Of a stretch of 64,000 bases of DNA, positions 4,804-64,000 are shown piece after piece. Position 1 is the first letter of the stretch; the number at the start of each line of letters is the position of its first letter. The notes under the pieces are model-generated. The model did not search any database and was not told where the DNA came from. It was given only the letters and a program-made list of their open reading frames with translations. Source of the stretch: Isoetes taiwanensis (Eukaryota; Streptophyta; Lycopodiopsida; Isoetales; Isoetaceae); assembly GCA_021234155.1 (NCBI GenBank), contig JAJEKV010000041.1:4454829-4518828 (forward strand), read 5' to 3'. The translations under genes and the position numbers were made by a program.

Positions 4804-6479
4804 AAATTCGACCCCTGAAATTCGACCTGAGGAATCAGTAGCAGAGCGATGGCGATCTCCAGGGCTCATCCATGCAAAAATTATCCGAGCAGAAGCCCAT
4901 ATGTACACAGATATAGCCAGATATTGAATAAAGATGAATGGTCAGATTTCGGGTGAGAAACTGTGAGCGAATAAACACAAAAACTGAGTTTGATGGTCAA
5001 ATTCAACGCGTGGACAAGCTCTTTCAATATCTGCAAAAAAGGACATACCTGTCAAAGAAGAGTCAAGAGAATAGAAACGAACGACTGAGAAAGAAGTTGC
5101 TTGGAGATCTGGCCAAGTCCTGGGGAACCGAAGGGTGATCCAAAGGAGCCCCATTGTAAGAAGAGTATAGAAAAAGAATTAGGATGGGAGGAGATGGTGG
5201 AGAAAAAAGCACAGGAAGGGTTTGCCCAATGCCACTATACTGCTGTGAGAAGAACACCAAATGAGGAAAAACACGAAAAGACCGAACATATATCGCTCTC
5301 TCTCTCACGAGAATCGTGATCCTATGGTGTGGATTGATCGGCATTCTAGTTCAATATATCATCTGTGGATTACTCTTTTGAGTCGCAAAAGTCATTTGCA
5401 TGATGAGACTTGCACTCATTCACTTCTTTCCTCGATAATAGCTAGTAGGTTTTGAATCTGGGTGTGGAATCCAAAGGCCTAGCCATGAGACCACACCGTG
5501 ATGGGTTCTGGGTTTGCCTTCCTTAACTGCAATTATAATGCAAACCATGGTAGTTGCTTCGAAATGCGTGTCTATTCTGTGCTTATCCACATATGTCTTC
5601 TTCCTTGTGCACTTTGATAATGCATTGTCTAGCTTTCTTAGCAAGGTGCTTTTTTATTGATCTCAATTTCCAGCACCGTCTCAACACCTTTTAATTACAC
5701 TTGTGACATGATTACCTTTTAATTACCATTTAATTTTCTTGTGACGTGGAGGACGCCCTTCATCATTTTTGCAGGATGACTTTCATTCCTTTGCAAGGTG
5801 TGCACGCAAAAAGGTTTTGCAGCCGGAATTGATTACACGCATAGGTTCGTAGGATCCGAAATGATGTTTGAAATGATTTCAAACATGAATTTTGGATTTT
5901 AAGTGTATTCTGAAAGGTCATGCAGCAGTCACAAACTCGATAATGTCTATAACAATCAACTCCAACGAGGTAATTTTGCTCTAAAAACTCGTGGTTTTCA
6001 ATTTTGCTTCTCAATTTGTTCTAACAAAATGTGTATACTATTGTTACAGAAATTGCTTCGAGTATGAATTTCTTGTAAACAGGGGCTTGTGTAATCAGGA
6101 AAAGAAATCAAAGGAATTGAAGGCTGAGGATGTTTCCTATCGTGATTTTCTTGATGTCGTGCAGAGGCCCCTTTGAAACTAAAGATCAACTTGAAATTTA
6201 TTAGACCTCATTTTTTACTCTGTTGCATGATTTTCTAGCAAGAATTTATCGGAAAACTAAGCCTACAAACAATGAGATTAGGGTCACATTTGCTCGAGGT
6301 TTTGTTTAAATTAATACCAACGAGCTTTGGCAAATTTTAAAGAGTTCAAATTGAACTAGATCAGTTTTGCTGCAAACGCTTTTACAAAATTCTGAGCACC
6401 AAATTTCTGAAGGAGCCATCAGCAGTTACTACTTGAATAGTAATGCAATGCTAGATTACTAGGGGACGTTTGTTGAGAT
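4804..6479. other. Gene-poor stretch; possible SINE head on the minus strand
   Basis: No gene recognised. CCCTGAAATTCGAC is duplicated at 4,799-4,827. On the minus strand near 5,445-5,500, TGGTCTCATGGC resembles a tRNA A box and ATTCAAAACC a B box about 35 nt further on, as in the head of a tRNA-derived SINE; no SINE tail or target duplication was found. The ORFs here are short and without family resemblance. Confidence 0.4.
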
Positions 6480-6581
6480 GACAAGCTATCGTCAACACAA
6501 AAATCTTTATTGAGGAAAGAAGGTGCAGAGGACAAGCTATCGTCAACACAAAAATCTTTATTGAGGAAAGAAGGTATTATT
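6480..6581. repeat. Perfect 51-bp tandem duplication
   Basis: The unit GACAAGCTATCGTCAACACA...AAAGAAGGT starts at 6,480 and again at 6,531, with only a short GCAGAG linker inside the period. The repeated part is identical, so the duplication is recent. It is non-coding. Confidence 0.85.
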
Positions 6582-7132
6582 TTGCCGGCGTAAACATAGC
6601 TTGCAAAGTTATATATAATAATATCCAGTTCAAACTAATGGCTAGACAATCAAGTCCAAAACTTGAGCTCTCAACAATGTTGATACATTAAATCTTGTCC
6701 AAGTTCTAAACCTCGGCCCCTCAAGGTGAGCTCTTAAAATGAACACGTAACATTGCCGACTATCTCACCACCCAACACTACATGTGACAGTGGTACTAAC
6801 ATATTCTATCATGGATGTCCCATCTATTTTTGTAGGTGCCTATAGTGGTACCAGCATCTTTTATCACGAGGGTTCTTGACCAATGAAATCATTTATGCCC
6901 GCCTCCAACACACATACCTTATATATATTCCTCAAAAATCGTTTGGAACGAATCTTGTACAGTGGTAAGCTTAAAGTGTTCTTGTATTACCATAGACCAT
7001 CTGAACTCCATAGACAATAAAAATCAATTCAAACTCGATTCAATTTGTCTATTATTACATCTCTGAGTAAATCGATTGCAAAACTATATACACCATAATA
7101 AGAACTTATTTATGTTGTTTAAATAAGAAGTT
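6582..7132. other. Non-coding AT-rich stretch
   Basis: No exon chain, ORF of note or repeat end is visible. It ends at the GGTTC target duplication of the TRIM element. Confidence 0.5.
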
Positions 7133-7137
7133 GGTTC

Positions 7138-7314
7138 TGTTGGAATGCTGAAGCATGTGTAATGGACACACATGAAGAATGACTCAATGGAGGAGTGCCG
7201 AAAGCCCATCAATAGGCCGGTGGCTCAGTGGTAGAGTACTTAGCTTGCAAGCAAGAGCTCCTGGGTTCGATCCCCAGCCTGTCCACCCAATCATAGAAAG
7301 CTCATTTCTCGACA
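7138..7314 (+). repeat. Left LTR of the TRIM element
   Basis: 177 bp, TGTTGG...CTCGACA. The final GACA is probably a mutated AACA, since the right LTR ends CTCAACA. It contains a tRNA-like sequence in sense orientation. Confidence 0.85.
7214..7285 (+). pseudogene. tRNA-Ala(UGC)-like sequence in left LTR
   Basis: D arm GCTC-AGTGGTA-GAGT, anticodon loop CTTGCAA (anticodon UGC, alanine), T arm CTGGG-TTCGATC-CCCAG and discriminator A are all present. The A box (TGGCTCAGTGG) and B box (GGTTCGATCCC) of an RNA polymerase III promoter are close to consensus. The acceptor stem and anticodon stem carry mismatches, so a functional alanine tRNA is unlikely. Confidence 0.65.
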
Positions 7315-7328
7315 TGGTATCACAAAGC
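7315..7328 (+). promoter_or_regulatory. Primer-binding site for initiator tRNA-Met
   Basis: TGGTATCACAAAGC abuts the left LTR and matches the canonical TGGTATCAGAGC in its first eight bases. A PBS directly against an LTR is diagnostic of LTR retroelements. Confidence 0.8.
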
Positions 7329-7433
7329 TTGGCCAGTGGAAAGCCCAACTCCCGCAGTGGTGGAGTTGCCCGAGGAGGGGAGCATGTGGATTGTGGTGAA
7401 GGCTGGAATGGATTGGTGTGCCCATTAAGGGGG

Positions 7434-7606
7434 TGAAGGCTGAAGCATGTGTAATGGGCACACATGAAGAATGACTCAATGGAGGAGTGCCGAAAGCCCA
7501 TCAATGGGCGGACAGCTCAGTGGTAGAGTACTTGGCTTGCAAGCAAGAGGTCCTGGGTTCAATCCCCAGCCTGTCCACCCAATCATAGAAAGCTCATTTC
7601 TCAACA
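7434..7606 (+). repeat. Right LTR of the TRIM element
   Basis: 173 bp, TGAAGG...CTCAACA, preceded by the AAGGGGG polypurine tract. Its 5' five bases differ from the left LTR; the rest aligns closely. Confidence 0.85.
7506..7577 (+). pseudogene. tRNA-Ala(UGC)-like sequence in right LTR
   Basis: The 72-nt sequence folds as a cloverleaf: acceptor GGGCGGA with CCTGTCC (two G-U pairs, last pair mismatched), D stem GCTC/GAGT, anticodon stem CTTGG/GCAAG with one mismatch, loop CTTGCAA, perfect T stem CTGGG/CCCAG with loop TTCAATC, and discriminator A. It keeps A and B boxes. Being inside an LTR and mispaired at two stems, it reads as a co-opted promoter rather than a true tRNA gene. Confidence 0.65.
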
Positions 7607-7943
7607 GGTTCCTTTTTAAGATGCAATATCTAATATTTAGATTCCACAACTTACAAGACATTTTTTGCTAAGAGGATATTTAAGCAAGGGAAATCCTCCA
7701 CACACACACCCACACACTACAACCCCCCACCCTTTGGCCAACATAGGCACGTTACCCAAATCTATGGAACAGGTACCCAAACAAGGCATCTTCCTCTAAT
7801 GCAAATCCATATCCGTAACATCCATTGACCATTGTTTTCCACATCTCTAGAACTATTTTTCTAAGCCATTGACAGAAGCTTATTGTCTATTTAGGAAAGG
7901 CACGACCAGTTTGATTCGATAGTATGTTGTAATCAGATTACCA

Positions 7944-10900
7944 TTACAAACTGGTATTTCTGCCCATTTGCAATATCACCAAGCCCTTATATTCCTCCAG
8001 TAGCACAGGTATATCAGCGATGCGGATCTGCAAAAAAGATCACGCAATTTAGATTATTTAAGAGCATCCCAACTTAAGAAAGTTAGTTCCAATACCTCAT
8101 TAGCATTTCGAACATGATGGAATTGGTAAATTGGCAATCTAATTTCTTCTACATCCACCTCCCTGAAACATAGGCACATAACTGTTACGACGCCACATGT
8201 CCGCTTCCAAAGGACTTGTCAAATGAACAAGATCATAGATTACATTTGAACAGCAGCAATTTGACGGTGGTAGTCTCGCAACAGAACATCCAATTCCTTC
8301 AATTGGAGGGAGTTGGAGTCACAACTTAGCCAGTGATCTCGAACAACCTACATTGACATGCAATCTCAAATCCCAAAACAACAATGAACTCCAAAAGATA
8401 TGCACATCCAAACCTTCAGAGTACTTTGTCCATCAATTCCATTATTTGCAAGCAAGGTATGACACAAGTTTAGTAACTCTTTATCATCCATTTCATCAAC
8501 TTCATCTTGTACGCAGACAGTAGGAATATGTGGCAGCCCTAAGCAATTGCGCAAGTCAGAAATCTGGCTAATCTTCCCAGGTTCCTTTCCCTGCATGTGT
8601 ACCATAACATTAGTCAACTTCGTGTGGCTCAAAAATATTGTCCATTTCTTTTCAAAACTTGGGTCAATATAGGTGGTACTTTCTGAGATGTCCCTAAGCT
8701 TGCATTCTCTGAAATGATAGTATGGCCTTGGGGTGGTGATATAGGCCTTTGTTTGGCCATTGGATCATCTGCATGTAGTAGAAAACGTTGATAAGATGTG
8801 GGGAAAACTTTGAGAATATGTGAAAGAGAGTGTAACAGACCATCTGATACTAGCCACCAAACGTCATTAAAGGTGCATTTGCCATCATAGCCGCCAATGA
8901 GGAGAAAACGTGTGCCGATCCGAGTCATGGAATGATAAGCCCGTGGAGAAGGTGCTTCGTTGTGCACTGAAGGACGTTTCCACTGCACAGATGCTGAGAC
9001 AACCTCACTAAAACTTAGTGGTTTCCACCTCATTTTACGACTATCTATAGCAAATGTATCCTACTAAATAATTTAAAAACTTGATACCTCGGTCAAGAAT
9101 GACTAAATCATTATGATAGACATCATAACGACTAAGCCAGCCTCCTGTTCCATGACCTCCAAAGACTAATAACTGCCAACCGCACTTATATTTCACTTGA
9201 TTGGAACAAAAGCGCCATGCTGAACTCAACAATTTAACCTTTTGTACCTGTGTACCACCAGGAGTGGTTGTATGGCCACAACGAGGGGCCGGCGCTGAAC
9301 CTGGTAACTTTAATTGTGTCCATGCTGGAGGCTCCTTCTCTTTCTTGACAACAATATATAAAACCAAAGGTTACCCCATTCACACACTCTAGTAATTCCT
9401 TTTAATAAACCAGCCTTAATTCACATTAAGTTTTGGAAATGCACATATACAATTATAATTAAGTATAACAAGCACACATAATTTTGACCATTCAGACATT
9501 GCTGTCAATCAGTTAGCCCCATGACAGTAATAATATTACTACAGTGCCATTCTGTAAACAATGGTTTTCCAGTTTGACTTCCTTAGTACATATGACTTGT
9601 TTCAACTTTGATTTCATAGCAATAATTATAAGCCTTTCTAGAAATGCCAGAAATCCATCATTTCCTGGACGGATATGTTTATGACAAATAAAGATCCCAC
9701 TCAAACGTTCATCTGACAAGCATCCCATCACTAAGGAGATAATTAGTTAGGAGTTAATTAACTAAAGATAGATGAAATACCTTCATCAAAAAGACCCTTT
9801 AAAGCCCATAAATCTCCTAGAATTGGGCCACCGCCTCCTGCAGTCAGGGAGATCTTTGAAAATTATAGGGTTAACGTAATTGACATGCGCTTTTGAATTA
9901 GCAAGAAAAAGGAGGGCACATAATGGTGCGTTTGAGAGTTCCACTGTGAAAATTTCCATGACATAGTCAACCATGCCCAAGAACTATATTGATAGGTCAC
10001 ATATATGGACATTACATCCTTTGCAAGCTTGGGTTCTTTCTGAAATTCAAATGTACCGGAATTTATGATCCTAAGAACCAAACTCATGTCAAGGGAACAT
10101 ACCGAGACTAACCTCTTCCACCAAAAAGAAGTAGACGCTTTTCCACCATTGTAGCAGTATGTCCACAACGAGGGGGTGGCATAGGTCCAGTTATAGGCAG
10201 CAACCGCCACTCCAAAGATACTGTTGTGAAGGAAGAAACTTAATCTAAGGAACTGTAAAATGTAATATATGCCACAGTTTACACACTTGTGTCGAGGACA
10301 TAAACATCCGAAAGCCACTTTGTCCCATCCCATCCGCCACAACTACAGTACAATGATTACGCGTTAGAACCTGAAATAACTAGTATTTCTCACTTCTCAA
10401 TGACCTTACATCACAAGCTTGCCATCTCCAAATGACGTGCCTGCAGCAAAATCACGCGCTGGAGGAAGATCCCCATATCCAGTAAGTTCTGCCCACTGCC
10501 ATGTATCTACAGACATTTGCTCTTAGATTTATGTATCCATCAGATAGTTTACAGCTCTTAACTGGCAGTTCTTGGTGTTTATCACACAATCACACAGATC
10601 AAGGCATTGGATTGCAACCAGATTATATACAAGAACAAGCAGATCTACATGATAATCCAGTAGGGACTGAGTGCAAGTTGAGGCAGATACCCTGCTGCTC
10701 TTGCCAGTTATGGCAACAGGCTCTAATAGCATGTTATCCCCTCTTCAAAGAACGTGACATCCTTTAAATGAAGTTCCATTTGAAGGATTTAAAGGAAGAA
10801 TTAGTCTCCCTCCAAGGCCTGCTAGAAATGCTCAGCCAAAGGAGGGACACATTACCCAACTTACGGCTAGCTGCTACACAACATCTTATCACGCCAACCC

Positions 10901-19724: not shown

Positions 19725-20690
19725 TAACCGTGCTCGAGCGAGGGGCTCCCCGTGAGTGGATGGTTAGTAAGGTTGTTCCTGTTCATAAAGCCGGTAATCT
19801 GGATGGCCGTGCCAATTACCGGATGATTATGGTAAGCTCATTGCTTGCAAAGCTCTGGCGTGGGTGGTGGAGAAGAAACTTACTAAGTGGGCCGAGGAGG
19901 CAGGGGTGCGGGCAATTGGCCAGGCAGGCTTTCGCCCAGCTCACTCCACGACCGACCATATCTTCACTTTGAGAGTGTTGATGGAGGCAAGCCGGAATGA
20001 GCGACAGGACTTGTATTGCTGCTTTGTAGATTTTAAGACTGCATATGATACCGTCCCCAGAGACATACTGTGGCAGAGGTTGCAAGAATTGCGAGTTCCA
20101 CAGGAGTTGCAGAATGTGGTGCACCAGCTTTATGATGGGATTTATGCTGCACTGCCTTATGAGGATCGGCGGGTAGCTAGCACTATGGGAGTTAAGCAGG
20201 GCTGCCCGTTGTCTCCAACGCTTTTTGGGTTGTATATTGATAGCTTGGAGACGTGGATGCAGCACCATGGGGGAGCCGGGGTGCAATTATCTGATGCGAC
20301 CTCTGTGAGCCAGTTACTATATGCGGATGATGTAGCTTTGCTAGCTCACACGGCCAGCAGTATGCAGCAGCATTTGGATGCCCTCAGTGGGTTCTGTGGG
20401 GCAACGGGAATGACAGTGAACTTGCACAAAACTAAGCTTCTCGCGATCCTGTCCTCGCAACACCCTATCCCGGAGTTCTATTACAGGGGACAGGAAGTGG
20501 AGATGGTGCGGAGCTTCAAGTATCTGGGAATTGATTTCACTACTAACATGCTGTGGGATGAGTGTGTGGAGAGAAGAGCCGGTCTGGCCGGAAGGCTTTA
20601 TATGCGATGCAAAACGCGTGTTGCTTGGATAGATCTCTCGGATCGGGGCGAGGAGAGCACACCGCTTTAGAGCTTTGGTTGAGCCGGTCT
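19725..20690 (+). pseudogene. Reverse-transcriptase domain of the nested LINE
   Basis: The best open part (19,864-20,670, 268 codons) has GQAGFRPAHSTTDHIFTLR, CCFVDFKTAYDTVPR, GVKQGCPLSPTLFGLYID, QLLYADDVALLAH with the catalytic YADD, and FKYLGIDF. A short preceding frame (19,730-19,860) supplies WMVSKVVPVHKAGN and NYRMI. The order fits fingers, palm and thumb of a non-LTR RT. One frameshift separates the two parts and another follows. Confidence 0.9.
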
Positions 20691-21714: not shown

Positions 21715-24700
21715 ACAGTGTAAAGGGCAAAGTGGTGAAACTGCATTATCAAATTTAGCCCTTTTTTCATTTGTTTGCAAGCTCTGGTGCAATAATAGCC
21801 ACCTGAATGTTTTCAGTTTGTTAGCAGTGTACAACTTCCAACTTTTTGCATTGATTTTGGCCAACGTTTTCTCATCACAGTGCCACATTGCATTTGCTTT
21901 GGATGGCTTGTGTACTATTATCTGTTTATACACCTCCTTTACTGAGTATATTTCCTTTCCCTGCAATGTCCACTGGTTGGAGTTTTCACTAAAATCATCC
22001 TGTGAGGCAACTATATCCATAACTTTCCTAAAAATCTCCTTATCAACCTGAGATCCTTTGGTTTCTGCTGCAATCTCATCCCAAGTTTTCCATCTATTCT
22101 GTACTCTTAGATCCCCAAACTTTCTGAGACCTGCATCATGCCATTGCATATACTTTTGTGGGTGTTTGAAAGCAAGACACCCTTCTTCCTCTGTGCAAAG
22201 ATCAGGATGCTAAAAGAAATTGTTTTCCGAACATCTTGCATCAATAATTGGTGGCTTATAACATAGACTTACCTCATTCCATGCTTCAAAGATCCTTTTC
22301 AATGTTTTAGATGTTCCTGACCCTGACTTAATCTTGAAGAAAGTAGAATCAGGCAATTGGTGTATAATTGTAGGACTCCCCACAATCTTTGATTTTTGAA
22401 GCCAGTATTTAATTAACCTCAGAGCTGGTGATGGTTTTGCACAATAGATGGCACTCCACACCAACTTAGCTGACAATGCCTGTGCCTGAATAAATAAATC
22501 CTTACAACCTAAACCACCATTCTTTTTATCCTTGACTAAATCAGTCCAAGCCACCTTATGGCTGCCCTGCCATATGAACTTCCTAATTGCTGTTTCAATC
22601 TTGTTATAGGAACCCTTGTCACCAATAATTGCTGAGGAGAAATAAACATATGTGCTACCAATCACTGCATTTGCAATTTCTACTCTTCCAGCTAATGATA
22701 ATGTCCCTGGATACTTATTAAGTTTCTGTTTTATTCTTGAGACAATTGGCTCCCATACACCTGGCAGATTTTTATTAAGAGCCAAAGGAATCCCCAAAAT
22801 GGTAATAACTGTATTCTTGTCCAAAACCTTTATCCCCTGTAAGTCCAGTTCCTGAGTATCCATAATGATAGCACTCTTTTTCCTGTTCAGCCTGACTGCT
22901 GACACATTGCCAAAAATCTCAATTGCCTCCAGAAAATTCTCCAAACTTTTATCTCCATGTTTAAGAAAAACAAATGTATCATCTGCATATTGCATGATGG
23001 TAAAGGGCTCATGGTCTTCTGGCATCATCAATGTTTGGATCTTACCTTGTTGTTGAAGATATGTAGCCATTTTGGTAACAATTTCAGCAACTATCAAAAA
23101 TAAATATGGTGCCAATGGGCAACCTTGTCTTACCCCACGTCTACACTTAAATTGTTTGCTTGGATTTCCATTTATCACTAAAGCTGAGGATGCTGTGCAA
23201 TTAAGACTCCATATTTTCTGATAGACTTCATCTTTAAAACCCAGGTGTTTCATTGCTCTTTCTAAAAACTGCCAGTTAATTGTATCATAAGCTCTTTGAA
23301 AGTCAAGTTTTAATAACATACATTTCTGACCTGACACCTCATTCCAATGCAATCCCTCTGAGGCTCCAATATAGTTCTCCAAGATGTTTCTTTGCTGCAG
23401 GAAAGCAGTTTGACATGGATTGATGAGCTTCATCAGGGTAGGCTTCAACCTATTAGCAAGAATTTTGGCAAGGATTTTGTATGTCGTATTTGTCAAGGAT
23501 ATTGGCCTCCAATCCCCAATTTGCAATGGATTATCTACCTTTGGAATTAAGGTAATATGTCCAGCATTTATTGCAGGGTTTAAACTTCTTGCTTTCCAAG
23601 CACCTTGTATAAAGATAATTATGTCATCTTTCAATATGTCCCAAAATTCAGCATAAAACTCAGGTTGGAATCCATCTGGCTCTGGACTTTTTCCTTTAGC
23701 CATAGACTTTATTGTCTCCCAAATTTCCTTTTCATCTGGTACATTCAATAATTCATTGTCTTCTTCAGCTTGAGGAGCCCTTGGAATGCCCTGAAAATAT
23801 TCCTCCATATCCTCCTCTGAAACTTCATTTTCCTGAAATATTTTACTGTATTCTTGATGGAAATAATCTTCAATATCTTCTTGTTTCTCCAGCATGTCAC
23901 CTGCAACTGTCTTAATTTGGACAATACCATTATTTACCATTCTGCTCTTGGCAACCCTGAAAAAGAAACCAGAACTTCCTTTGTCCATTTCATTAATGTA
24001 CCTGCACCTGCTTTTTACTGACAATGCTTTAGCTTCAGATTCCTCCACTAATTTAACTTTCCTTTCAAGAATTTCCTCTTGTTGCTGCAGGGCCTCATTT
24101 GATTTGTCCAAAAATAACCTACTTCTGATTTCTTTCATTTCTGCATATAAATCCTGTTTCTCCTTCCTTCTTTTCATATTCCATTCCTTGCCCCATTTCT
24201 TAATCCATCCCTTTATTAGCTTCATTTTCTGAATAAATCCCTTCATTGATTCTGTTCTGCTGACCGGGTTCAATGTAGATAAGAACAGTTTGAATTCATC
24301 CTGGAATGACTTATTATTTAATAATCCAACATTAAATTTGAAAGGACTATTTACTCCACCCCGACTTGCTTGAGTCCTACCCTGAATAGACTGTGGATAA
24401 TGATCAAAAATGGAGTTACTAACATCCCCAGTTACAAACAAGTCATCCCATGTATTAATACTTTTATTGCATATGTAGAATCTATCCAATAGACAGAACA
24501 CCCTTTCTTCTTTTTTCCTTTTATGACTCCAGGAGTAATTATTAGAAGTAGAAGGAGGAACATATGAAAAGAATGTCATCAAGTTATCCCAATAATCTCT
24601 TTCCTTCCTTGCCATATTAATTTTCTTTCCAAGTTTTTGGTCCCAAACAGGGGTATTATTGAAATCACCTGCCATCAGTCAATTTTCAATATTCTTTGTT

Positions 24701-32751: not shown

Positions 32752-33019
32752 TCCGGCATTTGGAAACTTGAGTGTGGAACGCGGGCAAGCATTCTCCCCA
32801 ACGCGGGCATAACTTCCCAATACACGCTGGAATTTCTATTAATTTTCTGTGACCGTCCATAAATCCAATGATGGAAAGTGCATCCACGCGGACAAAAATC
32901 CTAATTGGCAGCAACGTGGACACTCTAAAATTGCTTCAAAGTCCACTTGCGTTTGTGCAAACGTGCGAACAAGGTTCTTGTATTTATAAATAATATCGTC
33001 GCAAGAATGATCAACGGCT
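32752..33019. promoter_or_regulatory. Shared divergent promoter region
   Basis: The 268 bp lie between two divergent start codons. TATTTATAAA at 32,981-32,990 is a TATA-like site for the plus-strand PPR gene, very close to its ATG. About 170 bp (32,790-32,970) recur near 47,495-47,690, including GTTTGTGCAAACGTGC, so part of this block is duplicated in the window. Confidence 0.4.
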
Positions 33020-34807
33020 ATGGCGGATGTGGTTGTTACGACTGCCCTTCGCTTCCCCGGCGCAAGACATGGCCCTAAAATTGCCCTCTTACCACGTCGA
33101 GTAAAGAGTTCTATTTTAAGTGCATCCCTTCAAATACGTAGCAGCTATGAAAGCGGCCGCATCTACAAAACCTCTCAACAACACAGAGAGAAGGTTGAGA
33201 ATCTAGTTTCAAAATTAGAATGCCGGGATGCAGAACACAATCTAGAGGAGCTTCTAACTAGTTGGGGTAAGAAGATCACCCCAAGCTTTTTAGGTTATGT
33301 TCTCCAGAAATTGAGAAACCCTAACACTGCGATAGCAATTTTTTCCTGGGCTGCTAGACAGGACAGGTACAAGCACACTACATTTGCTTACAACTGTTTG
33401 CTCAATACCCTTGTTAGAAATGATAGGCAGGATGAAGCTTTTAGTATTTTTATGGAAAATATGAGGAAGGAATGCGAGCCTGACAATTTTACAGAGTCCA
33501 TTTTAGTCCGAGCACTATGCAGATCCGGTAAGATTGTAAAAGCTTGCAAGTTAGTCAAGTATATGAAATCTTCACATGGTTTGACACCAAATGTTGTTGT
33601 CTATACTGCGCTGATTGATGGGTTTTGCAAGGCGGGAAGGATTGAAGATGCTGTGGAGATTTTTAAGAAAATGGGCAAGGGAAAGACTTGTTCCCCGAAT
33701 GTAGTTACCTATAATGCAGTAATTGATGGGTTGTGCAAGGCTGGGAGGTTACCTGAGGCACAGGAGCTAATGAAGGAGATGCTAGATGCAGGTATTAAAC
33801 CTGATGCTTTCACATATACACCCTTGATCCATATTCTCTGTAAGACTGATAAAGTTGATGATGCTTACCAGTATTTCCGGACAATGATCCAGAACAAGTG
33901 CATCCCTCATGTGATTACTTACCTTGTCTTGCTAGATGGGCTGTGCCAACAGAAACGGTTAGATGATGCTAAGGGGCTTCTGCAAACAATGAACGCAACT
34001 AATTGTGCCCCAAGTGCAGGTGTATATGCCATGCTCATCAGTGCCTTCTACAAAGAGAACAGAGCAGATGAAGCTTGGCAATTATTTCAAGAAATGGTTA
34101 CAAGGGGATGCACTCCTAGTGTGGCCGTATATAATGCCATCATGGGCAATCTCTGCATGCAGGAGAAGTTTACAGGGGCTCATTGGCTGCTGCAGGAAAT
34201 GAGTGATAAAAACCGTAGGCCCAATGCAGCGACTTACAACATTCTCATAAAGGGCTTTTGTGCTGCCAAGAAAGTTGAAGAAGCCTATGTGTTTTACAAA
34301 GAAATGAAGATGCAGGGTTGGATTCCAAATAGTTCCGCTTATCAGGCTTTAATGGAAGGTCTTTCTCTTTTGAATAGGGATGATGATGCATTTTGTGTGT
34401 TTGAAGATATGGCATCTAATGAACGTTTTCCATCTTCTGAAGCATGTACTTTACTTGTAAATAATCTTTGTTCATCAGGAAAGTTTCATGAGGCACAACA
34501 AGTGATTAGGACTCTATGCGTGAAACAAAATATTGAAGGTGCTCAGCAACTTCTAGACGAGATGTTAGAAGCTGGCCATGTTCCTTCGAGCATTACATAT
34601 CAAAAGCTTTCATCTGCACTTTGTGAAGCAAATGAAATTGAGAAAGCCCAACATCTCCTCGGAGCTCAAAGCCCTTTATCTCTTGCCCAACATTTGGAAG
34701 GCTCTGCTGAATCAACGGTTGCGAGTGTTCCCTGTCCAGAAGTGGTGTATGAAGGGGAGAATCTACACGAGAGTGAATTGCACCAAACTGAGGAGGAGTG
34801 CTTCTGA
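33020..34807 (+). CDS. P-class pentatricopeptide-repeat protein, 595 aa
   Basis: A single-exon frame from MADVVV to TGA. The first ~40 residues are rich in R, S and A with few acids, as in organelle transit peptides. From about residue 115 the protein is a run of 35-residue PPR motifs: YNCLLNTLVRNDRQDEAFSI, VVYTALIDGFCKAGRIEDAV, VTYNAVIDGLCKAGRLPEAQ, FTYTPLIHILCKTDKVDDAY, VITYLVLLDGLCQQKRLDDA and others, ending near 550. The last motif (ITYQKLSSALCEANEIEKAQ) is followed by an acidic tail without E or DYW domain. P-class proteins bind organellar RNA, stabilising ends or aiding splicing or translation. The target cannot be read from here. One shortened motif (HEAQQVIRTLCVKQNIEGAQ) is the only oddity. 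It looks intact. Confidence 0.93.
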   Translation: MADVVVTTALRFPGARHGPKIALLPRRVKSSILSASLQIRSSYESGRIYKTSQQHREKVENLVSKLECRDAEHNLEELLTSWGKKITPSFLGYVLQKLRNPNTAIAIFSWAARQDRYKHTTFAYNCLLNTLVRNDRQDEAFSIFMENMRKECEPDNFTESILVRALCRSGKIVKACKLVKYMKSSHGLTPNVVVYTALIDGFCKAGRIEDAVEIFKKMGKGKTCSPNVVTYNAVIDGLCKAGRLPEAQELMKEMLDAGIKPDAFTYTPLIHILCKTDKVDDAYQYFRTMIQNKCIPHVITYLVLLDGLCQQKRLDDAKGLLQTMNATNCAPSAGVYAMLISAFYKENRADEAWQLFQEMVTRGCTPSVAVYNAIMGNLCMQEKFTGAHWLLQEMSDKNRRPNAATYNILIKGFCAAKKVEEAYVFYKEMKMQGWIPNSSAYQALMEGLSLLNRDDDAFCVFEDMASNERFPSSEACTLLVNNLCSSGKFHEAQQVIRTLCVKQNIEGAQQLLDEMLEAGHVPSSITYQKLSSALCEANEIEKAQHLLGAQSPLSLAQHLEGSAESTVASVPCPEVVYEGENLHESELHQTEEECF

Positions 34808-51242: not shown

Positions 51243-51320
51243 GTAAGTGCCCATGACATCTCTATGGAAATAGCATTTCAAAATGATGGTCTCAGTTAGA
51301 ATCTTGATTGGTCGCAGATA

Positions 51321-54300
51321 ATGGCAAAGACTCCCCATTCTAGGCATGAAGGTACTGAAGCTATATCTCGGATAGGGGGTAGTCTTCAATCTGATTGGGA
51401 TGAAGACAATCTTGGATATATGGAGATTGAAAAAGGAACAAATGATTTGAGAATGTTGAGCTTAGAAGAGGCTCTCGACCATTTGGAGCAAATGTTCAAG
51501 CAGCCTTCTGTTGAAGAAATTATAGATATCATGCAGAAGTGTAGGAGAATAAGAAGCCTACAATATGCCAAGCGCTTGCATTTATACATTTGCAGTAATG
51601 GGCTTGAGGTTCAGGCAACTCTAGGGAACCACATTGTGCCAATGTTTGTGCAATGTGGAAGCATGTACGATGCTCAACGTGCCTTTGACGTGTTGGTTTA
51701 TCGAAATGAACATTCTTGGACTTCAAATATCTTAGGGTATATTGAACATGAGCAACCAGTGTATTCTCTTAGCATGTATCAGGAAATGAGAAAATATAAC
51801 GTGTATCCTAGCAGCTATACACTTGTCGCTGTTCTGAGAGCTTGTATCAGAACCAGAGATTTAGAAAGAGGTCGAAAGATTCATATTGAAATAGTAAGAA
51901 GAGGATTTGATAGGAACCCATTTGTCGGAAGTACTGTTATTAACATGTATTCCAAATGTTGCTCACCTGGAGAAGCACGAGAAAGTTTTGATAAGCTATC
52001 AGTGCGGAATGTCGTAACCTGGAATGCATTAATCTCAGGGTATGTTGAAAATGGTGATGGTCAGGAGGCATTGCGCTGTTTTCAACGAATGCAACTTGAA
52101 GGCATGTCTCCTGATACTACCACATTTATTTGCAGCTTGAAAGCTTGTGGCATGTTGAGGACTACAGACAGTGGTAGAGCCATACACAGGAAAGCTACAG
52201 AAAAAGGGTTGGATAAAGATATTTTTGTTGCAAATACCATAATTGACATGTATGCAAAATGTGGAGCAATGTATGAGGCTCGAGAAGTTTTTGACAAATT
52301 GGTAGCTCGTAATGTTGTGTCCTGGAATGTGCTGATTGCAGGATATTCTGAAAATGCAGCCGGGGAGGCTTTGAAATGTTTTGAACAAATGATATTAGAG
52401 GGCATGCCTGCAGACGTTATCACATTCATTTGCACTTTGAAGGTCTGTGCCAGTACTGGTAACATAGATAAGGGGCGGGAAATACACCATAATATAAAGG
52501 GAAAAAGGTTTGAGAGGGACCTTTTCCTTGGCAACACATTGGTTGACATGTATGCCAAATGTGGTGCACTTACTGATGCCCAGCAGGTCTTTGATGAGCT
52601 ACGAGTGCGTGATGTTGTGTCATGGAGTGTTTTAATTGGAGGATATGCTGAAAATGGTCATGGCGAGGAATCATTGCGGATATTTGAACGGATGCAACTA
52701 GAGGGTCCACCTCCAGATAGTGCAACATTTGTTTGCTGTTTGAAAGCTTGTAGCAGCTTAGGAATTGTAGAGAAGGGCCGAGAAATACACTCAATAATTT
52801 TACAAAACCACTTTGAGAAAGACACTTTAGTTGGTACTAGTTTGATAGACATGTATGCTAAATGTGGCTCAATGATGGAAGCGCAGGAAGTCTTTGACAG
52901 GTTACCAATTAGAAATGTTATTTCTTGGACATCATTAATTGAAGGGTATGCTGGAAACGGACTTAGTCACGAAGCCCTGAGGTGTCTTGAGCAGATGCAG
53001 GTGGAGTATATTTGTCCAAATGCTGTCACATTCCTTTGCAGTTTAAAAGCATGTTGCAGCATTGGAGCTATATGTACAGCACGGAAAATTCATGCTCAGG
53101 TTGTACAAACAGGGTTACTGGAAAACCTTAGCATTGGAAATTGTTTGGTCGGCATTTATGCAAAGCATGGCTACCTTGCAGAAGCACATGAAGTGTTTGA
53201 TAGACAAGAAGCAAAGGATGTAGTGTCTTGGACTGCTCTGATATCTGGATATGCTGAGAATGGCCTTGGTGAAGAGGCGCTGAAATGTTTCCGAGAAATG
53301 TTATTGCATGATGTTTCTCCAGATGCTATAACTTTTCTTTCTTGTCTAAAAGCTTGTGGGGACGTGGGATCTGTGGACAGTGCAAGGGAAATACATGCAA
53401 GAGTTATACAGCTAGGATTTCAAGAGGAAGCCTTGCTTGTTGGAAGTCTTGTTGACATGTATGCAAGATGTGGATTGCTTGCAGATGCAAGAAATGTTTT
53501 TGACAGACTGTCATACCAAAATATCGCTTCATGGAATGCACTTATTGCAGGATTTATTGAAAATGGACATAACCAACAGGCGCTGAATTGTTTTGCGCAG
53601 ATTCAAGTGCAAGGGGTTTTGCCAGATGCTATCACCCTAGTTTGCAGTTTGAAAGCCTGTGGCAACTTAAAAAATGTAGACCAGGGACGAAAGATACACG
53701 ATGAGATTGTTTGCAAAAAATTTAAAGATAATGTTTTTGTTAACAATGCCTTGATTAGCATGTATGCAAAATGTGGGTTACTTGTGGAGGCACAGAAGGT
53801 ATTTGACAAGCTTCCAATCCGGGATGTTGTTTCATGGAATGCTCTAATTGAGGGCTATAGTGGCAATGGATGTGGTCAAGAAGCGCTGAAATGTCTTGAA
53901 GCTATGCAGCTAGAAGGCATGTCACCAGATGTTGTCACTCTTGTTTCTAGCCTAAAAGCTTGCAGCAACGTAGGAAGCATAGAAAAAGGTCGAGAAATAC
54001 ACATTGACATTGTGCGCAGAGGATATGGGAATGACCCTTTTGTTGGCAGTACATTGATTGATATGTATGCAAAATGTGCTTCAGTAGGAGAAGCACAGAC
54101 CATATTCAATAATCTGGCAATTCAAAATGTTATTTCATGGAATGCAATGATAAGAGCATTTAGTATGAATGATGAGTGCACCATGGCTGTGCAGTGTTTC
54201 CATAAGATGCTGGAAGAAGGTATAATGCCAAATGGTGTCACATTCACGTGTCTCCTTACTGCTTGCAGTCGTTCTAACTTTGTGGTCAAAGGTCAGGAAT

Positions 54301-55055
54301 ATTTTAAGGTAATGACAGAAGAATATAATATTGCACCAACAACAGATCACTATACTTGCTTAGTGGACATTCTTGCACGGTCTGGGCGCTTGCATGAGGC
54401 AGAGAAATTGCTTAAGCTTCTCTCTCCATCGGAAGAAAAATGGACAGCTTTTCTGGGATCATGTAAAACATATGGAGAAACAGAACTAGGAATAAGGTGC
54501 TTTGATCAGCTAGTGCATTTGAATCCGCAAAATGCCTCTTCGTATGTGCTTATGGCAAATATTTATGCAAGTGAGGGTGGATGGGAGGAAGCAAATAAGA
54601 TCCTGGAGCTTAAACAACGTGCAGGGGCAAAGAAAAAACCTGCAATTGCCATGATTGAGGTAAATAGTCAGGTGCACCAATTTGAAATTGGTGATAAACA
54701 GACTTCAGAACTTAAACAAATGTTAGAGACATTGAACTTATCCATGAAGGATGAAGGTTATATCCCAAATCTTGAACTTGTCTTGAAACGTATAACTGAC
54801 GAGAAGAAAGAAGTCACATTATGTGGGCATGTCACATTATCTGGGCATGTAGAGAGAATGGCTATGGCATTTGGCCTTCTCCACACTCCACAAGGGCATA
54901 CATTGCGTGTCACTAAAAATTTGAGAATGTGCAATGATTGTCACTGTGCCACTAAGGTTATATCTAGAACTGAAAAACGAGAGATTACTGTTAGGGAGCC
55001 CAACTGGGTACATCACTTCAAGGAAGGCCTGTGTTCTTGTGGAGACATGTGGTGA
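51321..55055 (+). CDS. PLS-class PPR protein with E and DYW-type deaminase domains, 1,244 aa
   Basis: The frame opens at an ATG just after a CAG acceptor and may extend upstream by splicing. From about residue 75 it is a long array of P, L and S motifs with the usual phrasing (IDMYAKCG, VFDKLPIRDVVSWNALI, ALKCLEAMQLEGMSPD, CSLKACGNL). E motifs begin near 1,005 (DHYTCLVDILARSGRLHEAE). The DYW domain fills about 1,104-1,244: the PG box is altered (KKPAIAMIEV), the catalytic H1176-x-E1178 is kept as HVE, C1204 and C1207 (CNDC) follow, and the end is CSCGDMW instead of CSCGDYW. DYW proteins deaminate chosen cytidines in plastid or mitochondrial RNA; the PPR array picks the site. An 18-bp duplication (VTLCGH/VTLSGH) precedes the catalytic H. 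No stop or frameshift is seen. Confidence 0.93.
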   Translation: MAKTPHSRHEGTEAISRIGGSLQSDWDEDNLGYMEIEKGTNDLRMLSLEEALDHLEQMFKQPSVEEIIDIMQKCRRIRSLQYAKRLHLYICSNGLEVQATLGNHIVPMFVQCGSMYDAQRAFDVLVYRNEHSWTSNILGYIEHEQPVYSLSMYQEMRKYNVYPSSYTLVAVLRACIRTRDLERGRKIHIEIVRRGFDRNPFVGSTVINMYSKCCSPGEARESFDKLSVRNVVTWNALISGYVENGDGQEALRCFQRMQLEGMSPDTTTFICSLKACGMLRTTDSGRAIHRKATEKGLDKDIFVANTIIDMYAKCGAMYEAREVFDKLVARNVVSWNVLIAGYSENAAGEALKCFEQMILEGMPADVITFICTLKVCASTGNIDKGREIHHNIKGKRFERDLFLGNTLVDMYAKCGALTDAQQVFDELRVRDVVSWSVLIGGYAENGHGEESLRIFERMQLEGPPPDSATFVCCLKACSSLGIVEKGREIHSIILQNHFEKDTLVGTSLIDMYAKCGSMMEAQEVFDRLPIRNVISWTSLIEGYAGNGLSHEALRCLEQMQVEYICPNAVTFLCSLKACCSIGAICTARKIHAQVVQTGLLENLSIGNCLVGIYAKHGYLAEAHEVFDRQEAKDVVSWTALISGYAENGLGEEALKCFREMLLHDVSPDAITFLSCLKACGDVGSVDSAREIHARVIQLGFQEEALLVGSLVDMYARCGLLADARNVFDRLSYQNIASWNALIAGFIENGHNQQALNCFAQIQVQGVLPDAITLVCSLKACGNLKNVDQGRKIHDEIVCKKFKDNVFVNNALISMYAKCGLLVEAQKVFDKLPIRDVVSWNALIEGYSGNGCGQEALKCLEAMQLEGMSPDVVTLVSSLKACSNVGSIEKGREIHIDIVRRGYGNDPFVGSTLIDMYAKCASVGEAQTIFNNLAIQNVISWNAMIRAFSMNDECTMAVQCFHKMLEEGIMPNGVTFTCLLTACSRSNFVVKGQEYFKVMTEEYNIAPTTDHYTCLVDILARSGRLHEAEKLLKLLSPSEEKWTAFLGSCKTYGETELGIRCFDQLVHLNPQNASSYVLMANIYASEGGWEEANKILELKQRAGAKKKPAIAMIEVNSQVHQFEIGDKQTSELKQMLETLNLSMKDEGYIPNLELVLKRITDEKKEVTLCGHVTLSGHVERMAMAFGLLHTPQGHTLRVTKNLRMCNDCHCATKVISRTEKREITVREPNWVHHFKEGLCSCGDMW

Positions 55056-60697: not shown

Positions 60698-63117
60698 ATG
60701 GTTTCCACAAGAGGTCGGAGAGGAGATGATGTTGAAGCTAGTAACAGAGTACCTACATAAAGGAAAAGAGTTAGTGCTCCAAGGAGGAAGCATCGGACAC
60801 CACAGATCAGTGCTGCATCTCCCACAATGCCAAGGAGGCCAAGCAAACGAGGGCAGTGGACTGAAGATCAAATGGCAGACATCTTGGATGAGGTAAGTGA
60901 GTATGGTATATCTGTTAGAGAGGCATCTAGAAGGTCTGGAATCCCAGAATCAACAATAAGGGACTGGCTGTATGGCCGTATAACTCACAAACAGACTGGT
61001 AATCCACAAATCTTGACGACTCTACAAGAGGAAAAGTTAGTCAATTGGACACTCTCCAGGGCCGAGCAGGGAATGGGGGTTACACTCTCAGCTGTCAAGG
61101 AAAGGGCAGCACAGATGGCTATGGAGGGGGGCAACTCAGAATTTCCCCGGGTTCTCGGGAGTAAATGGTGGAAGCTGTTCAAACAAAGGCATCCAGAGGT
61201 TACACTAAGAAGTGCAGAGACACTAGATGTCGCCCATGTCGCTCGGGCGCGTGCTATGACACAAGAGAATCTGGATAACTTCTATGCTGGTCTGAGACAA
61301 ATCTATGATGAGTTCAATTTCCCGGCCTCTAGGATCTGGAATGCCGATGAGACTGGCATCCAAGCTGGTAAGGTGAAGGGCATGAAGATCATAGGAAGGA
61401 AAGGGGAGCATAGGGTCAATGAGGTGGTCATGAACAATAGGGAGTGGGTGACCATTCTGGTATGTGTAAATGCTGAAGGGATTAGGATACCTAATTTGTA
61501 TATATTCAAGGGTACACGGATGAGGCAAGATAACATTGCCAGATGTGAGGAAGGGGCAATTCAAGCTATGCAGCCCTCGACCTGGATGACTACAGAATTG
61601 TTCAAGTCTTGGTTGTCACATTTTGTTGCTAGGGTTCCTGGTGGAGTATCTCCAACAAGGCCACATCTGATAATATTGGATGGCCATGGCAGCCATGTGG
61701 AGTTGGAAGTGATTTTGGCAGCTAAGGAAATGGGCATACATTTTGCCATACTTCCACCCCACACATCACATAAGTTGCAACCTTTGGATGTTGCATGCTT
61801 TGCACCATTCAAGGCAGCTTTCAAGAGATTGAGATCTTCTTACATGGTTAGCAAAGGGAGGACTGAACCGAAGAGGGAGGACATTGCAGAGCTCATTTCA
61901 CAGGCCATTGAATCAGGGCTGACACCTAGCAACATCAAGGCAGGGTTTAGAGCAACTGGGATTTGGCCATTCAACTCGGACAAGGTTAAGCCAGGCCAGG
62001 AAAGTGGCAGGTTTGGAAGAGTGCCCATGGAGCAGATTATCCAAAGTGTAGGCCAGGAAAATGCAGCCAACTTGGAGGAGGAGGAATTGGAGCAATTCAA
62101 CATGGCTGACTTGCATGCGTTATGGGAGGCACCACGCCCTGATGGTGAGCATGCTGGCCAAGAGCCTACTGGAGTGCATCAACATGTAGTTGACAATGTG
62201 GACATTGAAAGACATGATGTGCATCCATCTCACCAAGAAGATGCACCAGATAGAGAACATCAGGCCATTGATTCGACCTTAAGACCCTCACAGCAACATG
62301 TGGTTCCACCTGGTGACATGGGAACAGCACATGCATGTGTGCAGCTCCCTACAGAAGTGAGGACATCACAAGCCTGCATGCAACAATCTCAATCCTCGAG
62401 GGCAAGGAATCGGGGTGTAGTCCCAGACCTAAGTGGGAGGGTGCATATCTCTAGTGATGGCTTCTGTGAGGCCTTGGCTGCTAAGAGGTCTAGGAGAGCT
62501 GAGGCAGCAAGACTAAAGAATGAACAAGTTGCAGCCAGGAAACTCGAAACTGCTAAAAGGAAATTGGAAAGACAGGAGGCTGCCAGGAGAGCTCAACAGA
62601 ATAGGGAAGAGAGGGAAAATAGGAAGAAGGCTGATGCAGAATTTGAAGCCTCTACTGCTAGACTTAGGGCACTAATGTACCCCAGGGGCATCTCAAGAGT
62701 TGCAGCAGTCTTCAGCTTTCAGAGACCAATGAGTGATGAAGTGAGGAGCAAAAGATTAGAGGTTAGAAACAGAATGAGGACAAGGCAAGGGTTGAGTCCA
62801 ATCAGGGATCCAATATTGAGAACATCATTCAACATGGATCCTGGACTTCAGCAAGTTAGTGGATTGACCACACCAGTTACTAGTGATCATGCAGGTGACC
62901 AGGATAGTGAAGATGAAGTGAATGTTATGTGCAGCCTGGAAGATACTCACCTGTGCTCGGGAGATGTTGGTGGTGTGCAGGATGTTAGCATAGAAGGATT
63001 CCTGCCTCTGGTCAGACCTGTCCCAAACTCAATTAGTACAATCAGGTCACCATTGAAGACCTGGGACTTGGTCAACAGGGAGGGAGAGTCACAGCAAGAC
63101 GCAAGTATTGGCCCTGG
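60698..63117 (+). CDS. Pogo-like (Tc1/mariner superfamily) DDD transposase, nearly intact
   Basis: The main frame starts at 60,827 (MPRRPSKRGQWTEDQMADIL). An in-frame ATG at 60,698 adds 43 residues but is cut by one TAA at 60,758-60,760. Domains: a psq-type helix-turn-helix at about 10-55 (VREASRRSGIPESTIRDW), a CENP-B-like second HTH at about 60-140 (RVLGSKWWKLFKQRHP), and a DDE_1 core with D174 (NADETG), D285 (LDGHGSH) and D321 (PPHTSHKLQPLDV), 35 residues between the last two. A roughly 350-residue C-terminal extension includes a charged coiled coil (AARKLETAKRKLERQEAARR). The last residues (GFFFFFFLRVRDD) are read from the poly(T) of an inserted L1, so the true C-terminus is lost. The enzyme would cut and rejoin the element ends; no terminal inverted repeat was found. 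Confidence 0.85.
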
Positions 63118-64000
63118 TTTTTTTTTTTTTTTTTTTTTGAGAGTACGAGATGATTTTTTCATTAATTAAGGAAATACATACATAGTAGTTTGGAAGCCTT
63201 CATAGATAGGCTTTACCAAATTCAAATTACGGGAAATACAAGAAATTCAAGAGTAGTTCAAAAACACAATATCCAGTCAAAGTCCAGTCAAAGTCTTGTC
63301 CAAGTCTTGTCGAAACCTTGAGTCCTATACTTTTGTGTTAATCTGTTTGTTGTAGAAGAGGATTAGAGCCAGGAACTGAGGTATTTTCCAAAGAGGTAAT
63401 CCCATATCTCGTCCAAATAGCAAAACCTGTCTCTGTTAACAAACCTGCAAAAACCAAGCAGATACTATTGCATCTCAAAGGAGGCAATACTGTCAATGTA
63501 TGTCTCATCAGGGATGGTAGGAATCTTTGGATCATCAGAGTTTATGGCAGTATAGAACAGTTGGTTATAGGATTGATGTGAATGAATCAGCAGTTCCCAT
63601 GACATAGGAGTCGGCCATCCATAGATTATCCCTTATTAATCTGTAAAAATCCTGTTGAACCATGAGTAGTAAAAGGGTGCCATAAGCATCAGCTAACATT
63701 ATGTGAGTGTAGAACATCTGCCTGTATTTGTTGAACTGTCCTTCGGTGAATGAACCAATACATGTAAAATATTTGCATAACTTCCCTTGTGTATATACTT
63801 GCCCAAATCCTTTCTCTTGCCTTGCATATTTCATTGTCTCTGATCATCTGTCTGACTGACCATTGATTATGGGGAGGGAACATGACCTGGTGTTCATGAA
63901 TTCTCTCATCTCCATATAACTTAACTTCAAACATATCTGATCCTCTGTCAAATCTTCTCCTCTGATGACCTCTACATAGCTCCATGTACCCTATGAGCAA
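63118..64000 (-). mobile_element. 3' end of a second L1-type LINE, running off the window
   Basis: The T run 63,118-63,138 is the poly(A) of a minus-strand element, followed by ATTTTTTCATTAATTAAGGA and TACATACATAG, close to the 3' UTR of the L1 at 15.9 kb. A hairpin (TGGAAGCCT with AGGCTTTACCA) lies at 63,191-63,218. The minus-strand frames at 63,565-64,000 (for example VKLYGDERIHEHQVMFPPHN) are probably the end of its coding region but I do not recognise them. It inserted into the pogo transposase gene. Confidence 0.65.

What the first reader, a model, noticed from the sequence alone, without database searches (positions are those of the whole stretch)
7138..7606. TRIM retrotransposon with a tRNA-Ala-like Pol III unit in both LTRs
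TGTTGG...CAACA ends, a 5-bp GGTTC target duplication, an abutting TGGTATCA primer-binding site and a polypurine tract make this a complete TRIM. Each LTR holds a ~72-nt cloverleaf-like sequence with A and B boxes and a UGC anticodon loop. The known parallel is Cassandra, a TRIM carrying a 5S rRNA unit in its LTRs. A tRNA-based equivalent would be an element transcribed by Pol III from its own LTR, a separate solution to the same problem. That the tRNA unit is functional is inference.
Basis: partly seen in the sequence, partly recalled or inferred. Interest (0 to 1): 0.85.

Follow-up and report, generated by a model that had tools for sequence, protein, structure and literature searches.

The report
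Quillwort mini-retrotransposon with tRNA-like LTRs
This is one old, damaged copy of a several-hundred-copy family of tiny retrotransposons in a quillwort genome that carry a tRNA-derived promoter-like unit in each terminal repeat, a type of element already described in 2024 under the name Helenus and listed there from only one plant.

Summary
The host assembly matches Isoetes taiwanensis in size. The element at 7138-7606 has 94%-identical LTRs, a GGTTC target duplication, an initiator-Met-type primer site, a polypurine tract and a tRNA-Ala(UGC)-like unit in each LTR. It is not complete: 72 bp are missing after the primer site and the start of the 3' LTR is lost. It belongs to a dispersed family: 342 places match the anticodon arm with at most 2 mismatches. 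Exact LTR flanks at tRNA-containing spacing occur 140 times, at tRNA-less spacing once, and that one is a partial deletion. Exact 5-bp duplications flank 25 of 29 complete elements; 7 of 29 have identical LTRs. Over 91 LTRs minor-base frequency is 0.013 in the tRNA unit against 0.035-0.058 in most of the rest, though another block is equally conserved. Two stem mismatches are nearly fixed, so it is probably a promoter, not a working tRNA. The kind is known: Helenus / TRIMp3 (Kojima 2024, PMC10886601); Selaginella is the only plant listed. Verdict: new family of a known kind. Pol III transcription is inferred, not shown.

The parts
7133..7137 (.). target-site duplication GGTTC, left copy
   Evidence: read directly; exact 5-bp TSDs flank 25 of 29 complete family members
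7138..7314 (+). 5' LTR (177 bp), TGTTGG...CGACA
   Evidence: matches to family LTRs
7210..7212 (+). CAA triplet just upstream of the tRNA-like unit, the kind of site where plant Pol III is thought to start (recalled)
   Evidence: in the 74-LTR alignment LTR positions 73-75 are C 69/74, A 73/73, A 74/74
7214..7285 (+). tRNA-Ala(UGC)-like unit of the 5' LTR
   Evidence: Rfam RF00005 44.1 bits; ARAGORN; 4 differences from the family majority
7221..7231 (+). A-box region of the 5' unit (box label recalled)
   Evidence: LTR positions 84-94, minor-base frequency 0.010 over 91 LTRs
7264..7274 (+). B-box region of the 5' unit (box label recalled)
   Evidence: LTR positions 127-137, minor-base frequency 0.012
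7315..7322 (+). primer-binding site remnant TGGTATCA; in relatives TGGTATCAGAGCCA (initiator tRNA-Met type, identity recalled)
   Evidence: 29 of 40 fetched loci show TGGTATCAGAGCCA after the first LTR; of the other 11, six are loci where only one LTR was found
7323..7426 (+). internal region, with a 72-bp deletion at its left end relative to relatives
7416..7427 (+). arm 1 of a 12-nt complementarity that would loop out the PPT (GTGTGCCCATTA)
   Evidence: 613 of 620 cells paired over 52 distinct junctions, no double compensation; fold z -2.95 for L010, but -0.78 for the divergent L125, whose best fold lacks this helix
7427..7433 (+). polypurine tract AAGGGGG (many relatives AAGGGGGAA)
7435..7606 (+). 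3' LTR, lacking about its first 5 nt
7452..7463 (+). arm 2 of the 12-nt complementarity (TAATGGGCACAC), inside the 3' LTR
7502..7504 (+). CAA triplet upstream of the 3' unit
7506..7577 (+). tRNA-Ala(UGC)-like unit of the 3' LTR
   Evidence: Rfam RF00005 52.6 bits; ARAGORN
7607..7611 (.). target-site duplication GGTTC, right copy
7613..7617 (+). first T-run of 4 or more downstream of the element, a possible Pol III stop in flanking DNA
   Evidence: no TTTT inside 7138-7606, first after it at 7613

Best explanation
A non-autonomous LTR retrotransposon (TRIM) of Isoetes taiwanensis, most often 547 bp (177-bp LTR, 193-bp internal part), whose LTR carries a tRNA-Ala-derived promoter. Proposed cycle. 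(1) TFIIIC/Pol III recognise the A and B boxes in the 5' LTR and start at or near the CAA 2-4 nt upstream of the tRNA unit. (2) With no TTTT in the element, Pol III reads through the internal part into the 3' LTR and stops at a weak site at the LTR end (ATTTCTC) or at a T-run in flanking DNA. (3) Initiator tRNA-Met primes on TGGTATCAGAGCCA, the strong-stop DNA jumps through the repeated tRNA-to-LTR-end segment, and the PPT primes the plus strand. (4) An integrase supplied in trans by an autonomous LTR element, perhaps Copia, inserts it with a 5-bp duplication. Shown here: the anatomy, dispersal, TSDs, recent copies, and the regular, conserved tRNA unit. Inferred: transcription by Pol III, start and stop sites, trans-mobilisation and its partner. 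The window copy is an old, damaged insertion.
For: tRNA-like unit in both LTRs and family-wide: 342 places with the anticodon arm at up to 2 mismatches, 140 LTRs with tRNA-length spacing against 1 without, tRNA with plain anticodon called in 84 of 91 full-length LTRs against 0 of 2000 shuffles. Conservation over 91 LTRs: minor-base frequency 0.013 in the unit against 0.035 (positions 1-64), 0.040 (65-76) and 0.058 (160-177); sites with variants shared by 4 or more LTRs 4/72 in the unit against 17/105 elsewhere (Fisher p 0.035), while sites with singletons are not reduced (31/72 against 34/105, p 0.16), as expected if selection acted on source copies and not after insertion. The result holds without the loci found through the tRNA unit (88 LTRs, same site counts). 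Near-fixed stem mismatches (G.G in 91/91, C.U in 85/91) argue for promoter and not tRNA function. No TATA box, AATAAA or TTTT in the LTR majority. PBS and PPT, exact TSD in 25 of 29 complete elements against 5 of 812 control pairs; solo LTRs with exact TSD in L060, L061, L062, L068, L069; 7 of 29 LTR pairs identical. Of ten Copia elements sampled from 150 scored hits, 9 match at least the first 12 nt of this PBS in the upstream piece.
Against: No transcript data. LTR block 25-48 is as conserved as the tRNA unit (0.010 against 0.0125), so conservation alone does not single out Pol III boxes; A and B boxes (0.010, 0.012) are hardly lower than the rest of the unit (0.014). The Fisher p is modest and LTRs are not independent. 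In older, divergent LTRs the unit differs less than the rest from a recent copy in 18 of 27 rows but more in 9. In the window copy itself 8 of 11 LTR differences fall in the unit. Lack of TTTT (1 run in 29 elements, 14.2 expected from shuffles) is weak because copies share ancestry: about half a run is expected per element. T-runs downstream are not clearly enriched: 20 of 29 within 200 nt against 16 of 29 in the upstream antisense control. There is no clear Pol III terminator inside the 3' LTR, unlike Cassandra as Kojima describes it. No autonomous partner was found; only PBS and short PPT context are shared with the Copia elements sampled.
Confidence: 0.75

Rival explanations
1. The LTR is transcribed by Pol II like an ordinary TRIM and the tRNA unit is a passenger or an enhancer/insulator bound by TFIIIC.
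For: A non-tRNA LTR block (25-48) is equally conserved; no internal Pol III terminator in the 3' LTR.
Against: No TATA box or AATAAA in the LTR majority; the tRNA unit is poorer in shared variants, and one tRNA-less spacing was found against 140.
Confidence: 0.17
2. A mobile tRNA gene: the LTR units make working tRNA-Ala(UGC) that enters translation, and the element spreads tRNA genes.
For: G3:U70-type pair in 89 of 91 LTRs and UGC anticodon in 82; ARAGORN and Rfam accept units.
Against: G.G in the anticodon stem (91/91) and C.U in the acceptor stem (85/91); the 72-nt unit of L010 folds no better than shuffles (z +1.13); the genome already has 160 matches to an ordinary tRNA-Ala pattern; Kojima judged most Helenus units unlikely to be functional tRNAs.
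Confidence: 0.05
3. tRNA processing, not only promotion, is a function: RNase P/Z cutting at the unit sets the 5' or 3' end of the element RNA. This could hold together with the best explanation.
For: Would supply the missing 3' end where no TTTT exists; most stem pairs other than the two mismatches are kept.
Against: Stem mismatches and poor folding; cutting in the 5' LTR would destroy the template; no data.
Confidence: 0.05
4. Chance or one-off recombination: a tRNA gene inserted in this copy only.
For: None found.
Against: Family-wide presence.
Confidence: 0.01

Closest known systems
Helenus (Kojima 2024, PMC10886601), a TRIMp3 group; plant example Helenus-1_SMo of Selaginella moellendorffii
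   Same: TRIM with a tRNA-derived segment with box A/B in each LTR, PBS and PPT, 5-bp TSD (as plant and fungal Helenus), length within 311-1263 bp, tRNA calls with doubtful tRNA function, solo LTRs, tandem arrays (as LTR-11_DR); Selaginella is, like Isoetes, a lycophyte.
   Different: LTR 177 and internal 193 bp here against 120 and 85 bp in Helenus-1_SMo. Sequence relation to Helenus-1_SMo could not be tested. Host not in Kojima's Table 1. PBS matches a tRNA 3' end (recalled), not an anticodon loop as in most fungal Helenus.
Cassandra
   Same: TRIM with a Pol III-type unit in the LTR, the same PBS core TGGTATCAGAGC (search pattern quoted in the passages of PMC7215508), tandem arrays.
   Different: 5S rRNA unit, not tRNA; Cassandra terminates in the 3' LTR's 5S unit (Kojima's account), whereas no T-run of four exists in this LTR majority.
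Ajax (nemertean TRIMp3)
   Same: Pol III-type small-RNA segment in a TRIM LTR, 5-bp TSD.
   Different: Partial 5S, animal host.
Ordinary plant TRIMs, including those of Selaginella (Gao 2016, PMC4717578)
   Same: Size class and LTR-PBS-PPT-LTR layout (layout recalled).
   Different: The word counts over its main text give no 'tRNA', 'Pol III' or 'polymerase III' (passages seen only).

Membership tests
TRIM | two LTRs, total under about 1 kb, no coding capacity | tested here: met
   29 complete two-LTR elements of 531-697 bp, 547 the commonest (8 of 29); coding capacity not scanned separately, the internal part is 193 bp
TRIM | PBS next to 5' LTR and PPT next to 3' LTR | tested here: met
   TGGTATCAGAGCCA in 29 of 40 loci; AAGGGGGAA or close variants before the 3' LTR in most
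TRIM | target-site duplication | tested here: met
   25 of 29 exact 5-bp; the others are two tandem-array loci and two with 4/5
Helenus | tRNA-derived sequence inside the LTRs | tested here: met
Helenus | conservation around box A and box B | tested here: met
   minor-base frequency 0.010 and 0.012 against 0.035-0.058 in variable LTR parts; but the rest of the unit (0.014) and block 25-48 are similar
Helenus | 5-bp TSD in plants and fungi | tested here: met
Helenus | sequence homology with published Helenus-1_SMo | not testable with these tools
   the published consensus was not at hand (supplement look-ups are capped at 0) and the genome collections held are prokaryote apart from the window's own
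TRIMp3 | functional Pol III promoter | not testable with these tools
   no RNA or ChIP data; Kojima also leaves this open for Helenus
Cassandra | 5S rRNA-derived unit in the LTR | tested here: not met
   Rfam search of 6000-9000 at E up to 1 lists two tRNA matches and one weak plastid-ycf2 match, no 5S
functional nuclear tRNA-Ala gene | complete pairing of acceptor and anticodon stems | tested here: not met
   G.G 91/91, C.U 85/91
SINE | tRNA head without LTRs, no PBS/PPT | tested here: not met
   window copy has LTRs, PBS remnant and PPT; seven further places found with the tRNA unit alone (L074-L080) all hold LTR sequence; the other hits were not each checked for this

The most novel reading that the evidence does not exclude
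A tRNA-promoter TRIM that lacks any Pol III terminator of its own: Pol III starts in the 5' LTR, reads through both LTRs, and takes its RNA 3' end from flanking host DNA or from an unusual weak stop at the LTR end, so that the R region is defined by a promoter-proximal tRNA unit alone. That would be a different arrangement from Cassandra, where the 5S unit brings both start and stop. A 12-nt helix that loops out the PPT would be a second conserved signal, perhaps read by the autonomous partner.
Probability: 0.2. Interest if true: 0.55.

Novelty: new member of a known kind. Interest (0 to 1): 0.36.

Why it matters
It adds a second plant, also a lycophyte, to a group for which Kojima's Table 1 lists only Selaginella among plants. 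The family has recent copies (7 of 29 LTR pairs identical) and a regular tRNA unit, so it is a good place to test whether tRNA-bearing LTRs are really driven by Pol III, which Kojima says cannot be concluded without experiment. It also matters for annotation: most of these LTRs are called as tRNA-Ala genes, and the related Isoetes sinensis genome paper lists 8,975 tRNA genes and names tRNAscan-SE as the tool (passages); elements of this kind may account for part of that, which I did not test.

Tried and rejected
Tried without result. (1) Autonomous partner: 10 Copia elements sampled out of 150 scored RVT_2 hits (13,951 candidates); their end pieces share with the TRIM the PBS and only short further matches (best E 0.003; one, L106, has a 14-nt PPT-side match). 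An LTR pair was found in 8 of the 10, an exact TSD in 3. Gypsy elements were not looked at; Gao 2016 names a Gypsy-type relative for a Selaginella TRIM (passage). Unresolved. (2) TTTT depletion as evidence for Pol III: 1 run in 29 elements against 14.2 expected, rejected as strong evidence because the copies share ancestry. (3) T-runs in the downstream flank: 20 of 29 against 16 of 29 in the control. (4) Covariation of the PPT-flanking helix: 23 departing cells, 16 still paired, none changed on both sides, so suggestive at most. (5) Insertion beside host tRNA genes: ARAGORN on 94 loci (114,518 bases) gave 135 calls, all inside LTR matches, so no sign of it within these short flanks. (6) Longer-range test with divergent LTRs: the unit differs less than the rest in 18 of 27 rows and more in 9; some rows are partial, and these loci were found with a divergent LTR as query, so they are kept out of the counts. 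(7) LTR-specific deletions of about 14-28 bp upstream of the unit looked like a subfamily, but differ between the two LTRs of one element, so they are probably later losses.

Rows dropped: one search kept 91 LTRs (81 distinct, 60 loci) matching 1-3 to 175-177 from the 72 loci L009-L080; three of these LTRs come from loci found through the tRNA unit, and leaving them out changes little. One search kept 29 elements with both LTRs near full length. L017 and L034 share flanks and are copies of one insertion. The window copy is not among the 29 because its 3' LTR start is missing. Pattern counts need exact or near-exact matches and so are floors.

Full report
What is there. The window lies in a genome of 1,658,258,908 bases in 1,110 contigs. 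The Isoetes taiwanensis assembly is 1658.30 Mb in 204 scaffolds and 909 contigs, 1,113 in all (PMC8566536, passages), so the host is very probably that aquatic lycophyte, although the piece count differs by three. At 7138-7606 there is an LTR pair (94% over 172 nt), flanked by GGTTC on both sides, with TGGTATCA next to the 5' LTR and AAGGGGG before the 3' LTR. ARAGORN and Rfam find a tRNA-like unit in each LTR. The copy is damaged: 72 bp missing after the PBS, start of the 3' LTR lost, and 8 of its 11 LTR-LTR differences lie in the tRNA unit, against the family's trend.

The family. A search with the element gave 78 matches from 40 scored of 366 candidates; with a full LTR, 514 candidates, 40 scored; with the internal part, 265 candidates, 40 scored. 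For the family counts I fetched 72 loci (L009-L080), one of them the window copy. The commonest length of a complete element is 547 bp (8 of 29, range 531-697): LTR 177, internal 193, LTR 177 (L010). Of 29 complete two-LTR elements, 25 have an exact 5-bp TSD, two have 4 of 5, and two are tandem-array loci; in the control, 5 of 812 mismatched pairs agree. Two of the 25 (L017, L034) are one insertion duplicated with its flanks. Solo LTRs with exact TSDs occur in L060, L061, L062, L068 and L069. LTR-LTR divergence has median 1.7% and is zero in 7 of 29, so the family moved recently.

Is the tRNA unit part of the element? The exact LTR sequence on both sides of the unit, at a spacing that holds the unit, is found 140 times; at a spacing without it, once, and that one keeps the T-arm side and so is a deletion. 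The anticodon arm with up to two mismatches occurs 342 times. ARAGORN calls a tRNA with a plain anticodon in 84 of 91 full-length LTRs, 82 of them Ala(tgc), and in none of 2000 base-shuffled LTRs.

Is it constrained? In 91 LTRs the mean frequency of minor bases is 0.035 at positions 1-64, 0.040 at 65-76, 0.013 in the unit, 0.018 at 149-159 and 0.058 at 160-177; it is 0.010 for the A-box, 0.012 for the B-box region and 0.014 for the rest of the unit. A first alignment of 74 LTRs, all from loci found with the whole element, gave 0.051, 0.013 and 0.041 for upstream, unit and downstream. Variants shared by four or more LTRs, which reflect the source copies, hit 4 of 72 unit sites and 17 of 105 others (p 0.035); singletons, which mostly follow insertion, do not differ (31/72 and 34/105, p 0.16). 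Leaving out the three LTRs from loci found through the tRNA unit does not change this. Against a simple reading: positions 25-48 are as conserved as the unit (0.010 against 0.0125), the LTRs are not independent, and in divergent LTRs the unit is the more conserved part in 18 of 27 rows only.

tRNA or promoter? The unit keeps G3:U70-type pairing in 89 of 91 LTRs but has G.G in the anticodon stem in 91 of 91 and C.U in the acceptor stem in 85 of 91. The unit of L010 folds no better than shuffles. The genome's ordinary tRNA-Ala genes (160 pattern matches) are 77.6% identical over 67 nt to the unit in the two cases L101 and L102. So it is tRNA-Ala-like and probably a promoter. The CAA 2-4 nt upstream is conserved; that plant Pol III starts at such triplets is recalled. 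The LTR majority has no TATA box, AATAAA or TTTT.

Mechanism and gaps. The likeliest cycle is given in Best explanation. The weakest link is the 3' end: there is no T-run of four in 28 of 29 elements, but about half a run per element is all that is expected and the copies share ancestry; flanking T-runs are hardly more frequent than in the control. The helper is unknown. Nine of ten sampled Copia elements carry the same PBS core, three of the eight with an LTR pair show an exact 5-bp TSD, and none has more than short matches to the TRIM.

Known or new. Kojima 2024 (PMC10886601; parts 1-4 of 6, and section 29) named TRIMs with a tRNA-derived LTR segment Helenus, with 5-bp TSDs in plants and fungi, conserved boxes A and B, doubtful tRNA function and no experimental proof of Pol III use. 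Its only plant is Selaginella moellendorffii (LTR 120, internal 85 bp). Searches with Cassandra/TRIM/tRNA/Pol III terms, Helenus, TRIMp3, Isoetes taiwanensis, Selaginella with TRIM and tRNA, Isoetes with TRIM and tRNA, and tRNA-derived LTR elements listed no title or abstract opening reporting such an element in Isoetes; these are listings, and of the papers I saw passages of PMC12859917, PMC8566536, PMC4717578, PMC10853983, PMC7215508 and PMC10541799. I therefore file it as a new family of Helenus. Whether it descends from the same ancestor as the Selaginella family could not be tested.

Noticed in passing
L081, L082, L085, L088-L090 (G000 C1018, C1074, C1101): Clusters of tRNA-Ile(UAU) genes repeated at irregular spacings of roughly 0.5-2 kb, with one tRNA-Thr(UGU) in L090.
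   Followed up: no
G000 C66, C232, C926: Ordinary tRNA-Ala genes lie in dense arrays, in C926 often at alternating steps of about 300 and 950 bp.
   Followed up: no
window 7416-7427 and 7452-7463; same in relatives: A 12-nt complementarity flanks the PPT and would loop it out; 613 of 620 cells paired in 52 distinct junctions but no double compensation; the LTR arm lies in the other conserved block.
   Followed up: partly
L125, L127, L132, L134, L136, L140: One LTR of the pair lacks about 14-28 bp at or just upstream of the tRNA unit while the other LTR has it; the deleted stretch seems bounded by short CAATGG-like repeats (repeats by eye).
   Followed up: partly
L037, L038, L129; L063, L077, L131, L133: Tandem LTR-internal-LTR arrays, and repeated segments inside the internal part; tandem arrays are reported for Cassandra and LTR-11_DR too.
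   Followed up: partly
window 7510-7515: In the 3' unit the 5' acceptor strand reads GGACAG, an exact complement of CTGTCC at the unit's 3' end, unlike the family majority; may be a hairpin-templated change (idea only).
   Followed up: no
window 22210-24678 (-) and 19798-20670 (+): Long frames that look by eye like non-LTR reverse transcriptases (no family search run).
   Followed up: no
window 60761-63169 (+): 802-aa frame that looks by eye like a pogo/Tigger-type transposase with a helix-turn-helix start (no family search run).
   Followed up: no
window 33011-34807 and 51300-55055 (+): Long open frames that look by eye like pentatricopeptide-repeat proteins (no family search run).
   Followed up: no
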